From positions 1 through 64,000 of the forward strand of contig JACPHJ010000093.1 of the NCBI GenBank assembly GCA_016188675.1: DNA of 64,000 nt. The letters are read 5' to 3'. Positions 21,500 to 26,388 of this stretch are shown here, in pieces. Position 1 is the stretch's first letter; each line of letters starts with the position of its first letter. The notes under the pieces were generated by a model. The model saw only the letters and a list, made by a program, of their open reading frames with translations, was not told where the DNA came from and did no database searches. This DNA comes from Planctomycetota bacterium. Lineage in GTDB: Bacteria; Planctomycetota; Brocadiia; Brocadiales; Brocadiaceae. A program made the translations under genes and the position numbers.

Positions 21500-21846
21500 A
21501 GCCTACCTTTCTGGCTTGGATTATTCGCAACTAAAACACCAGACACGAAGTCATTAAAACATTTAAAACCGAAAGTTGTCGGACTATTATATCATACTTT
21601 CCCGGAAAAAAACTATTTTATGGAAAGTTTGAATAGTCCTTTCGCAGTGTCCCTCAGTTAGTAGATATTACCTTCGTTTCCCCTTGGTTTTATAAACTAT
21701 ATAAAAGAGAAAACCGGGTATACTAATTACTTTGAGAACCAGAGAAATAGGCGGCTAGTCCACTAACCCGTGCCAGGATAAAAGAACGAATATCATATGC
21801 CGTTGTGTCTCTTTCCGGCATGCGGAGAGGTAGCAGGGCATAATTC
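21500..21846. other. Intergenic region, no gene seen
   Basis: The 347 bases between gdhA and the 132-aa gene hold the presumed gdhA promoter region. I see no convincing gene, riboswitch or repeat. A short palindrome-like stretch (GCCGTTG..CCGGCATGC) lies near 21800. Confidence 0.4.
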
Positions 21847-22245
21847 TTAAATTAATGAACTGGTTTTTATTTTACGATTTTCCACCATATCATAATTTAT
21901 CTCAGTAACAATATAGTTCCATTCACGTCTACGCAGTTCATTTACAAGTTGTTCGTCACTGAATTGGGACAACGTTGACGGTAAAAGCTTCTTGATGCTG
22001 ATTCCGTGAGCTGCATTGCGGAAAAGGTAAACCTCTCCTTCCAGGGCGAAACTTCGGCAATCTTCGCTGCGGTATAAATTTATACGCCTTTTAATTTCCG
22101 GAAGACCTCGGTTAGTTAAATGTTTATTAATATCTTTGCCGGCGATCAATCCAAGCTGGCGACGCTCCTCTTCGTTCCATTTCTTATTGTCTTTCACTGC
22201 CATCTGAGCGGCTTCTTCGTACGAATTTGCATTGTACAATTTCAT
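21847..22245 (-). CDS. Hypothetical protein, 132 aa
   Basis: I do not recognise this family. The product is soluble, mixed charged, starts MKLYNANSYEEAAQMAV, and includes an NEEERRQLGLIAG segment and an LRRREWNYIVTEINYD stretch near the end. The ATG is preceded by AAAGGAGGG. It follows the SulP gene by 68 bases on the same strand and may share its transcript. No catalytic motif is evident. Confidence 0.65.
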   Translation of the reverse strand: MKLYNANSYEEAAQMAVKDNKKWNEEERRQLGLIAGKDINKHLTNRGLPEIKRRINLYRSEDCRSFALEGEVYLFRNAAHGISIKKLLPSTLSQFSDEQLVNELRRREWNYIVTEINYDMVENRKIKTSSLI

Positions 22246-22313: not shown

Positions 22314-23996
22314 TTACATGACACATGCAGTCCTGTAAGTTTCTAAGGTTTTATTCCCGGAAGCATCTTCGTTGATTTCAAAACCAAGCGTCTCTAACGC
22401 TTCCGTCGTGCTATTAAATACCAGATTTTGCTCTTTTAAGTCATCGTACCATCCGGTTTTGGTCAAAATAGGAATAATAAATGGTCCGGCGCTGGTAAGG
22501 ATAACTTTTTTACCCTGAGCCTTAAAGGTATTAATTACTTCCCCCAAAGCATCCAGGCCGTCTAAATCTATATGGAAGAGATTTCTAAAGTTTATGATCA
22601 CAGTATGAGCGCCATTGATCTTGCTTAAATTCTCAAGATGTGACTGCGAGTTGATGTAGTTCAGTTGACCGGCAAAGCGGTACACGACAACATCGCCGGA
22701 ATGCTTTTCTACCTCGTTAAATTTGATAGTCTGCACTCTGGCAACCATTTTTCTACCCCTATGTATATTTATTTCGGTCTGAGCTCTGGAGAAATGATTA
22801 ACAAAAATTAAAAGCGCAATAATTGCCCCGATCATAATGCCAAATATTGGATCTTCCACCAGGGTCACGCCTGTAACCACAAATGACAAGGCGAAGGCTT
22901 TTTTATCATGCTTATAGATGTGCATGAAGTGCTCGGCGCTGACCATCTGAATAGCCACGGACACTAAAATTGAAGCTACTACGGCCAAGGGAAGATATTT
23001 GAAATATGGTAAAAATATTAGGGAAATAACGCCAATAAGAACACAAGTGACTGCAGCCGAAGTTTTGTGATTTGCTCCACTTTTAATATTTAGCGCTGTC
23101 CGGGCAAGAGCTGCAGTAGCCGGTATACCGCCAAAAATTCCCGATGCTATATTGGCCAGGCCCAATCCCATCATCTCTTTCCTTTGGTTAGATTTTGTAT
23201 TGGTCATGTTGTCCGCTATTTTGGCCGAGATAAGAGTTTCCAGTATGGCAATAACTGCAACGGCAAAAGCGGTTTTAAGCAGGTCAATGTCGATAAAGTG
23301 AGGAGAAAAATTCGGCATCTGGTAAATTTTTGAGCCGATTTCTCCGAACCTGGTGTGCAGGGTTTGAAAATGAGCGCTAATAAATCCGTTTTCAGACAGA
23401 TAACCTAAAAACATCCCGATAGGAGCTACGATAATAGGGCCGGGGACTTTGGGTATTAATTTTGAGAAATAGAAAATTACTGCTATGGCGACCAAAAATA
23501 ACGTAATTGTCCCGGCATCAAACTGACCAATATGCTTAAAGGACTCCATCACATTCTGCAAAAGGTGCTTGTGTACCGGCAAACCTTTCAGTCCCAGCGC
23601 AAAATTCAGTTGGTTTAACCCTATTATCAAAGCAACACCAAGGGTAAATCCGTGCACAACGCTTGAAGGAATAAGGACTATATATTTCTCAAAACGAAGG
23701 GTAAAAAAAACTATGATGATAATTCCGCTTACTATTGCAAGCATCGGCAGGGAAGCATAGCCGTAATTTATAGCAAAAGCAGCCAACATGCCGGAAAGCG
23801 CTCCCGTGGGGCCAACGATATTGTAATTACTGCCTCCGAATATGGCTGCAATAATCCCAGCCCAAACGGCTGTGATTATTCCCATTAAGGGAGAGGCATT
23901 GGCGGCTACTGATAATGATACTGAAAGCGGAATGGAAACCAGCGATACGGCAAGTCCCGATTTCCAGTTGTACTTAACATGAGAAAAAAACTGCAT
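22314..23996 (-). CDS. SulP-family anion transporter
   Basis: The 560-aa protein has about 10-14 TM segments with SulP-type sequence (GGSNYNIVGPTGALSGMLAA near residue 55, and a second-repeat LGLANIASGIFGGIPATAALARTALNIKSG near 280) and a C-terminal STAS domain (about 425-545; VIINFRNLFHIDLDGLDALGE). SulP proteins carry sulfate, bicarbonate or other anions; some bacterial members are Na+/bicarbonate symporters. The nearby DAB genes make bicarbonate worth considering, but the substrate is unknown. I use the ATG at 23996, which has AAGGAGCGC upstream. The 5' end and leader of this gene are present in two further partial copies upstream (24238-24777). Confidence 0.88.
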   Translation of the reverse strand: MQFFSHVKYNWKSGLAVSLVSIPLSVSLSVAANASPLMGIITAVWAGIIAAIFGGSNYNIVGPTGALSGMLAAFAINYGYASLPMLAIVSGIIIIVFFTLRFEKYIVLIPSSVVHGFTLGVALIIGLNQLNFALGLKGLPVHKHLLQNVMESFKHIGQFDAGTITLFLVAIAVIFYFSKLIPKVPGPIIVAPIGMFLGYLSENGFISAHFQTLHTRFGEIGSKIYQMPNFSPHFIDIDLLKTAFAVAVIAILETLISAKIADNMTNTKSNQRKEMMGLGLANIASGIFGGIPATAALARTALNIKSGANHKTSAAVTCVLIGVISLIFLPYFKYLPLAVVASILVSVAIQMVSAEHFMHIYKHDKKAFALSFVVTGVTLVEDPIFGIMIGAIIALLIFVNHFSRAQTEINIHRGRKMVARVQTIKFNEVEKHSGDVVVYRFAGQLNYINSQSHLENLSKINGAHTVIINFRNLFHIDLDGLDALGEVINTFKAQGKKVILTSAGPFIIPILTKTGWYDDLKEQNLVFNSTTEALETLGFEINEDASGNKTLETYRTACVM

Positions 23997-24249
23997 TTTT
24001 GTGCGCTCCTTGGTATTTTCTGGCTGACAGGGCAAGCTTGTCAGATTGAGAATAAATAATTCTTGGGTTAATAAAATTAAATAGTTTAATTTTAATGAAC
24101 AATCTTTAAAACTAAAGACCGTCTCCGGTTGAAAAAATTTACAAATGAAACTCTATAACGGGTAATTAGTTTAACAACGCATTTCAAAGGTAAACTAAAT
24201 CAAGGCGACCGGCTTGAGTTCGGTTGGATTGAACTACAAACGGCTGTGA

Positions 24250-24390
24250 TTATACGCGTCTCGGTACGATTCGTTTGAGAAAAGGGGGAGATTTGGCGGC
24301 TATAACTGATAATATAGAAAGTGAAATGGAAACCAGCGATACGGTAAGCCCCAACTTCCATTTGATCTTAACGTCAGAAAAAAACTGCAT
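24250..24390 (-). pseudogene. Truncated SulP N-terminus, copy 2
   Basis: A 46-codon frame with start at 24390 and GGAGCGC upstream reads MQFFSDVKIKWKLGLTVSLV, close to the SulP N-terminus, then drifts into unrelated residues and stops. It results from the tandem duplication. It could still be translated as a short peptide from the SulP leader. Confidence 0.75.
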
Positions 24391-24653
24391 TTTCGTGCGC
24401 TCCTTGGTATTTTTTGGCTGACAGGGTAAGCCTGTCAGATCGAGAACAAACAACTCTTAGGTTAATAAAATTAAATAGTTTAATTATAATGAACAACCTT
24501 TAAAACTAAAGACCATTTCCGGTTGAAAAAATTTACAAATGAAACTCTATAACGGGTAATTAGTTTAACAACGCATTTCAAAGGTAAACTAAATCAAGGC
24601 GACCGACTTAGGTCTGGTTGGATTGAACTACAAGCGGCTGTGATTAAATCACA

Positions 24654-24764
24654 TCAGGGAGGGGTATCGGCGGCTTCTGCCAATAATTTGGAAAGTAAAA
24701 TCGAAACCAGCGATACGGCAAGTCCCGATTTCCAGTTGTTCTTAACGTCAGAAAAAAAATGCAT
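24654..24764 (-). pseudogene. Truncated SulP N-terminus, copy 3
   Basis: A 36-codon frame starting at 24764 reads MHFFSDVKNNWKSGLAVSLV and stops at 24654. It is the outermost, most truncated copy of the SulP 5' end. It retains the GGAGCGC Shine-Dalgarno. Confidence 0.72.
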
Positions 24765-24988
24765 TTTTATGCGCTCCTTACTCAGTAGTATACAATATTT
24801 AGCGTTATGTTAATTAACAAATACATTATATCATATACCTAGATTTTATAAAAAAACAGCGAAGTTATTCTCCCAAATATATAAACAAATGTCAAGGTAA
24901 TTCTTTTATTGATTCATCGGCTACAATATAATACCCCGCAATCTGGTTTCGGCTTGGATTGCAGGATTTATGTATTGTATTAAAAAAT

Positions 24989-25013
24989 AAAGGCGAACGT
25001 GAGGTTCGCCTTT
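24989..25013 (-). terminator. Rho-independent terminator of the hyf-like operon
   Basis: On the minus strand AAAGGCGAAC, a 5-base loop and GTTCGCCTTT form a perfect 10-bp stem followed by ATTTTTTAAT. It sits about 70 bases after the stop of the fused ferredoxin/NuoB-like gene at 25084, as expected for the end of the operon. Bases 24778-24988 hold no supported gene and are AT-rich. Confidence 0.85.
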
Positions 25014-25083
25014 AGTACGACAATTTAAATTTTGTATCTGGATTGTCTTTGCGGAGGATAAAAAGACTATCAACCTAAAATAC

Positions 25084-25884: not shown

Positions 25885-26388
25885 GCCCACGAAATACACG
25901 AAAAAACACTAAAAAATTATCTATTTACCTACGGTACGTCCATTGGCCTTTCATCTGTCAAAATAAATCTCTCATATTCTAATTTAGGATAATGACCAAA
26001 ATTAGCGAGTATGCCCAACTTTAATCCAGATGCGTTTAGATAATTAAGAACTTGCGCTTTATGCTCATCCACAAGGTTTGAAACTGCTTTAATTTCAACA
26101 ATTATTTTATCATAACATACAAAATCGGGTTTATACGTTTGCTTTAATTGTTTATCTCTGTATGTGAGCTTTAATTCTTCGCAAGATTCAAACGGAATTT
26201 CTTGCCCTTCAAATTCAATTTCCAGGCATTCGTGGTAAACATTCTCTAGAAACCCACATCCCATTGCTTTGTAAACATTAAAACAAGCCCCCATGATGGC
26301 ATAACTTTCATCAGGATATAAGATTCCAGACATAGTTCAACTTACCCAAAATTTTTCTTTTTCGCGTAATTTCGCGTATTTCGTGGGC
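25885..26388. mobile_element. GxxExxY cassette flanked by inverted repeats
   Basis: GCCCACGAAATACACGAAA at 25885 faces its inverted copy, which reads TTTCGCGTATTTCGTGGGC at 26370-26388. Only one gene lies between. The cassette leaves about 7 bases to the hyfG-like stop and 9 to the hyfHI-like start, so the original gap would have been about 16 bases. No transposase is present. Confidence 0.72.
25929..26333 (-). CDS. GxxExxY protein
   Basis: The 134-aa protein belongs to the GxxExxY (PD-(D/E)XK nuclease-like) family: GFLENVYHECLEIEF near residues 27-41, KPDFVCYDKIIVEIKAVSNL near 68-87 with the expected D and ExK, and HKAQVLNYL. The family is widespread, often in multiple copies, and its role is unknown. 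It lies alone inside an operon for a hydrogenase-like complex, on the same strand, between inverted repeats. It is a passenger, not a subunit, in my reading. Confidence 0.9.
   Translation of the reverse strand: MSGILYPDESYAIMGACFNVYKAMGCGFLENVYHECLEIEFEGQEIPFESCEELKLTYRDKQLKQTYKPDFVCYDKIIVEIKAVSNLVDEHKAQVLNYLNASGLKLGILANFGHYPKLEYERFILTDERPMDVP

What the first reader, a model, noticed from the sequence alone, without database searches (positions are those of the whole stretch)
23865..24777. SulP gene start and leader triplicated in tandem
Three partial copies, about 373-395 bases apart, each carry a SulP start codon with GGAGCGC upstream and 20 or so matching codons. Only the last is attached to the full gene. 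The two outer copies give short peptides. Repeated leaders may add regulatory sites, produce leader peptides, or mark recombination that changes gene expression.
Basis: seen in the sequence. Interest (0 to 1): 0.6.

Follow-up and report, generated by a model that had tools for sequence, protein, structure and literature searches.

The report
Anion-transporter gene start copied twice
In a group of bacteria related to anammox species, the first part of an anion-transporter gene and its ribosome-binding site has been copied twice in front of the intact gene; the array is old and shared across genera, and at least one copy seems to be kept as a very short membrane peptide of unknown use.

Summary
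On the minus strand two truncated copies of the SulP start (A, 36 aa, from 24764; B, 46 aa, from 24390) precede the full SulP gene (23996-22314). Each has AAGGAG and an ATG. The repeated unit is 374 or 394 bp and includes a ~250-bp spacer. It is not an assembly artefact or a recent slip: 6 of 62 genomes of the order, in three genera, carry it or its remains. Four have two short copies plus SulP, one has two copies but has lost SulP, and one has a decayed copy and a broken SulP. Copies group by type (A, B, SulP), so the three-part array appears to predate the split of the genera. B shows protein-level constraint (omega 0.42, p = 0.005 against 1), and A is suggestive (0.48, p = 0.08). SulP's own start gives 0.145. 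A TTGACA-type promoter precedes the first copy. Best reading: an ancient partial tandem duplication kept as two short upstream ORFs on the SulP mRNA, B probably a translated one-helix membrane peptide derived from SulP's first helix. The main rival is slowly decaying relics with gene conversion between copies. Regulation of SulP is inferred, not shown.

The parts
22314..23996 (-). full-length SulP gene (560 aa; SulP permease domain and STAS domain)
   Evidence: ORF; Pfam PF00916 E 1.6e-57 and PF01740 E 1.4e-11; PDB relatives 7lhv, 5da0, 6ki1
24006..24011 (-). AAGGAG ribosome site of SulP
   Evidence: sequence
24014..24249 (-). spacer 2 between B and SulP
   Evidence: 89-90% identical to spacer 1
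24024..24044 (-). hairpin CTGACAAG-CTTGC-CCTGTCAG upstream of the SulP ribosome site
   Evidence: sequence; consensus fold; covariation not above shuffles
24250..24390 (-). truncated copy B: 46-aa ORF, SulP-like for 32 residues, then own tail KSPPFLKRIVPRRV
   Evidence: omega 0.42 on six B copies
24400..24405 (-). AAGGAG ribosome site of copy B
24408..24653 (-). spacer 1 between A and B (hairpin at 24438-24418)
24654..24764 (-). truncated copy A: 36-aa ORF
24774..24779 (-). AAGGAG ribosome site of copy A
24867..24895 (-). sigma-70-like promoter TTGACA-17-GAGAAT upstream of copy A; TTGACA kept in four of five compared arrays
   Evidence: consensus matches only
24988..25014 (-). terminator-like hairpin that ends the preceding hydrogenase-type operon

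Best explanation
An old partial tandem duplication of the SulP 5' end (ribosome site, start codon, first ~44 codons) plus a ~250-bp spacer. It arose before the split of the genera that carry it and was inherited, with exchange of pieces between copies. A promoter ahead of the first copy most likely makes one transcript: short ORF A, spacer, short ORF B, spacer, SulP. The short ORFs use the same kind of ribosome site as SulP. B (and perhaps A) is translated into a one-helix membrane peptide made of SulP's N-terminus and first membrane helix; B ends in its own basic tail. Its most likely role is to tune SulP output or assembly, either by being translated in the long leader or by the peptide itself in the membrane. 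Shown: anatomy, distribution, sharing of types across genera. Supported by statistics: protein-level constraint on B. Inferred: the single transcript, translation, and any effect on SulP.
For: Two short copies plus SulP in 4 genomes (G000, G028, G030, G011), two copies without SulP in G002, one decayed copy in G008; 6 of 62 genomes of the order in all. The start-segment tree separates SulP starts (support 0.88), A-type (0.81) and B-type copies (0.84; 0.86 with G000_2 included). B: omega 0.42, LRT p 0.005; first 46 codons of SulP 0.145. On non-overlapping tree paths A+B have 29.5 silent changes against 18.4 expected in frame (p 0.0005); the other two frames show no excess (p 0.77, 0.98). B's tail, absent from SulP, gives 5 silent to 3 replacing changes, 2.5 silent expected (p 0.05). 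The six B ORFs carry one indel, of exactly 3 nt, while 9 spacers carry 15 distinct gap intervals, none a multiple of three. In G002 both B ORFs stay open although SulP is gone and the spacer behind the second has drifted most (55-68% identity to the others). B folds as one long helix, residues 2-33, in a single-sequence model (mean pLDDT 78.8); hydropathy maximum 2.2 over 19 residues.
Against: Few sequences (six B, four A) and 36-46 codons. A alone is not significant by LRT (p 0.08; count test 0.024); B without its tail p 0.027 by LRT but 0.08 by the count test. Conversion from SulP could carry silent-biased changes into the copies, except in B's tail. G028_1 against G002_1 shows 3 replacing and 1 silent change. 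A ends at different stops (36 aa in G000 and G030, 61 aa in G011). In G008 copy and SulP decay together, and 27 of 33 genomes of the family show no array. No expression data; no RNA element found.
Confidence: 0.42

Rival explanations
1. Neutral relics. The copies are leftovers of a partial duplication that decay slowly; gene conversion among them and with SulP keeps them alike and lends them SulP's silent-biased changes.
For: Omega of A and B is about three times SulP's. Types are reshuffled (AA in G030, BB in G028 and G002) and spacers are as alike within G000 and G030 as between them (89-93%). The G008 copy has lost its start. Restricted to 6 of 62 genomes.
Against: Frame-specific silent excess in B, including the tail that SulP lacks; six B ORFs open over three genera with only a 3-nt indel; SulP starts form a group of their own in the tree, so conversion with SulP is not frequent.
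Confidence: 0.38
2. The ~900-nt leader acts as RNA: spacers and hairpins before each ribosome site control SulP, and the peptides are incidental or only matter through being translated.
For: Spacers differ less than SulP four-fold sites: G000-G028 spacer 2 0.15 against 66/214; G000-G011 0.23-0.29 against 76/207. A hairpin can be drawn before the ribosome site in 9 of 10 spacers. The spacer that no longer faces SulP in G002 diverged most.
Against: No Rfam family at threshold; hairpin covariation no better than shuffles (86/500); spacer 1 of G028 lost the hairpin although its SulP is intact.
Confidence: 0.15
3. The copies are small toxic membrane peptides of type I toxin-antitoxin style in tandem, like the Ldr repeats of E. 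coli.
For: Tandem ~400-bp repeats, 36-46-aa peptides with one hydrophobic helix and, in B, a basic tail.
Against: The peptides are plainly SulP N-termini. Antisense promoter-like matches in the spacers vary in type, are missing in two of nine, and the count of promoter-like matches in the window stretch (6 against 3.7 expected, sd 1.9) is near chance.
Confidence: 0.03
4. Assembly artefact.
For: The sequences are mostly draft genomes; one relative's contig title gives coverage 3.6.
Against: Separate assemblies of several species show it, one on a 439,645-bp contig; copies in the window differ by 11-28%.
Confidence: 0.01

Closest known systems
Partial tandem gene duplication leaving copies of a gene's 5' end (general evolutionary process)
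   Same: Segments of gene start plus flank in direct repeat, exchange between copies, decay in some lineages
   Different: Two extra copies are present in all five arrays that still have a complete upstream part, over three genera, with a frame-specific silent excess
Upstream ORFs or leader peptides of bacterial operons (recalled class)
   Same: Short ORFs with good ribosome sites ahead of the main gene, probably on its transcript
   Different: The peptides are copies of the downstream protein's own N-terminus; no attenuator was found
LDR/Ldr-Rdl tandem repeats of E. coli (type I toxin-antitoxin; passages of PMC4147584 read)
   Same: Tandem repeats, each with a small peptide (35 aa in Ldr)
   Different: Here the peptide descends from a transporter's first helix; no consistent antisense RNA signal
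SulP/SLC26 anion transporters (solved relatives 5da0, 6ki1, 7lhv)
   Same: The full gene is an ordinary member by domains
   Different: Its 5' end is present three times

Membership tests
SulP/SLC26 transporter (full gene) | Sulfate_transp domain above Pfam's cut-off | tested here: met
   195.5 bits against 23.2
SulP/SLC26 transporter (full gene) | C-terminal STAS domain | tested here: met
   44.5 bits against 22.6
SulP/SLC26 transporter (full gene) | anion transport | not testable with these tools
   needs assay
Partial tandem duplication | direct repeats including part of a gene, attached once to the whole gene | tested here: met
Functional upstream ORF / leader peptide | start with ribosome site, open frame, ahead of gene on same strand | tested here: met
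Functional upstream ORF / leader peptide | protein-level constraint | tested here: inconclusive
   B p 0.005, A p 0.08; six and four sequences only
Functional upstream ORF / leader peptide | translated and affects the downstream gene | not testable with these tools
   needs ribosome profiling or fusions
Type I toxin-antitoxin | antisense RNA antitoxin gene | tested here: inconclusive
   antisense promoter-like matches in 7 of 9 spacers, of varied type; promoter-like count near chance
Riboswitch or known leader RNA | match to an Rfam family at its gathering score | tested here: not met
   only match is 33.7 bits against 100, outside the repeats

The most novel reading that the evidence does not exclude
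A transporter gene has spawned, by tandem copying of its own start, two dedicated micro-proteins made of its first membrane helix, encoded on its own mRNA and kept by selection; B, with its basic tail, would insert next to SulP and control its assembly or activity, and has outlived SulP in one lineage.
Probability: 0.25. Interest if true: 0.6.

Novelty: new variant of a known kind. Interest (0 to 1): 0.36.

Why it matters
If B is translated and useful, the locus shows in several stages (A-B-SulP, A-A-SulP, B-B-SulP, B-B without SulP, decayed copy with broken SulP) how a small membrane protein can arise by duplicating the start of the gene it later serves. If not, it is still an example of a partial tandem array that has resisted both collapse and expansion across genera.

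Tried and rejected
Origin of B's tail: an 18-nt identity with the antisense strand of a hyfE-like hydrogenase gene appeared in two genomes of genus g2, but the window's own hyfE-like gene has no such match within 4 mismatches and the paralogue on G002's array contig has 3 mismatches; I treat it as probably chance.

Array elsewhere: no further copy in the window's genome; a profile of the units run on 91 fetched loci (other SulP genes, hyfE and GDH neighbourhoods with up to 1.5-kb flanks, array loci) found it only in the known six genomes.

RNA element: Rfam, consensus folds of 5 and 10 spacers, pair counts: no supported structure. Internal promoters: no sense match shared at one place across genomes.

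Literature: searches. Searches returned no paper; one returned one off-topic listing; two returned listings and abstract starts without an evident case; 51 led to passages of PMC4147584. I therefore know of no report of this array, within those searches of an open-access library.

Dropped or chosen rows: G030_2 counts as A although it looks chimeric by eye (B-like first third, A-like rest); one codon gap was inserted in G011_2. One search used 3 of 15 B pairs, 2 of 6 A pairs and 2 of 10 SulP pairs, chosen as non-overlapping tree paths. The fold used 5 spacers; one search used the 10 of A3 (the drifted G002 spacer 2 left out). Alignment A2 holds 12 of 15 starts (the three G030 starts left out).

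Full report
Observation. On the minus strand the SulP gene (23996-22314, 560 aa) is preceded by two truncated copies of its own start. Direct-repeat search gives three copies of 149 nt at 24779-24631, 24405-24257 and 24011-23863, spacing 374 and 394, and two copies of the start-plus-spacer stretch at 89% identity; TRF reports the array with score 1250. No other repeat of 60 nt or more was found in the window. Each copy has AAGGAG about nine bases before an ATG.

Anatomy. In reading order: terminator-like hairpin after the hydrogenase-type operon (25014-24988), promoter-like TTGACA-17-GAGAAT (24895-24867), copy A (36 aa), spacer 1, copy B (46 aa), spacer 2, SulP. A and B follow SulP for about 32 codons. 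At the DNA level likeness resumes at about SulP codons 38-44 and then stops. B has an insert that gives a tail KSPPFLKRIVPRRV; A stops at PP. Spacers end in a hairpin and the ribosome site. The gene is SulP by Pfam (PF00916, PF01740) and by solved relatives.

Distribution. Searching 33 genomes of the family with a unit gave matches in 6; searching 62 genomes of the order with the peptide alignment gave the same 6, and the close SulP is in 5 of 62. G000, G028 and G030 are one genus, G002 a second, G008 and G011 a third. G000, G028, G030 and G011 have two short copies and SulP. G002 has two B-type copies and then, without SulP, the small gene that follows SulP elsewhere. G008 has a copy without its start and a SulP broken by frame changes and a deletion. 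A glutamate-dehydrogenase-type gene lies downstream in all six (Pfam for the window's).

Age and exchange. In the tree of start segments, SulP starts, A-type copies (G000_1, G030_1, G030_2, G011_1) and B-type copies fall apart, with supports of 0.81 to 0.88. A-B-SulP in both G000 and G011 suggests that the array predates those genera. A-A in G030 and B-B in G028 point to exchange. One anomaly: copy 1 of G028 and of G002 differ at 4 of 138 sites in the ORF and 52 of 222 in the spacer, while the neighbouring dehydrogenase genes differ at 94 of 182 four-fold sites. Either a segment passed between lineages or this stretch is under strong constraint; I cannot decide.

Selection. Codon model: omega 0.42 for B (LRT 8.0, p 0.005), 0.48 for A (p 0.08), 0.145 for the first 46 codons of SulP. 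Count test on non-overlapping paths: silent excess in frame (p 0.0005 for A+B; 0.0095 for B, 0.024 for A), none in the other frames. B's tail alone p 0.05, its first 32 codons p 0.08. Indels: one 3-nt gap in six B ORFs against 15 gap intervals in nine spacers. These results favour a translated B, but the sample is small and conversion is a confounder.

Mechanism. The promoter-like site before copy A keeps TTGACA in four of five arrays (G002 has TTGAAT); sense matches inside spacers do not recur at one place across genomes. So one long transcript is the simplest picture. B folds as one helix (residues 2-33, mean pLDDT 78.8, single sequence) and is rich in basic residues at the end (net +5 to +7 for the whole peptide). 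Its likely fate is a small membrane peptide; control of SulP translation or assembly is my inference. Against it stand the rival of neutral relics, nearly as likely, and that of an RNA leader.

Verdict. A real, old, shared partial tandem duplication with suggestive evidence for a kept micro-protein. Moderately interesting, not a new kind of system.

Noticed in passing
window 25885-26388: A PDDEXK_3 (GxxExxY-type, name recalled) gene at 25929-26333 sits between two hydrogenase-type genes, flanked by 31-nt inverted repeats 84% complementary. In G030 (L051) the two hydrogenase ORFs are only about 90 bp apart (5823/5912), so the gene looks like an insertion into the operon.
   Followed up: partly
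window 21663-21801: Fragments 78-79% identical to a hyfE-like hydrogenase gene of G001 lie between the 132-aa gene and the dehydrogenase gene; in G002 a near full-length second copy of that gene is in this place (L052 1627-2349). The array neighbourhood thus also holds a decayed duplicate of an operon gene.
   Followed up: partly
L050 313-520 and the first copy in L052: About 200 nt of array copy 1 is 96% identical between two genera whose flanking dehydrogenase genes are far more diverged: possible exchange between lineages.
   Followed up: partly
L053 136-2698: In G011 two ORFs that look (by eye, no family search) like a group II intron reverse transcriptase and a REP-type transposase lie just upstream of the array.
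   Followed up: no
window 21847-22245: 132-aa protein between SulP and the dehydrogenase, with relatives in the other array loci, without a Pfam match.
   Followed up: no
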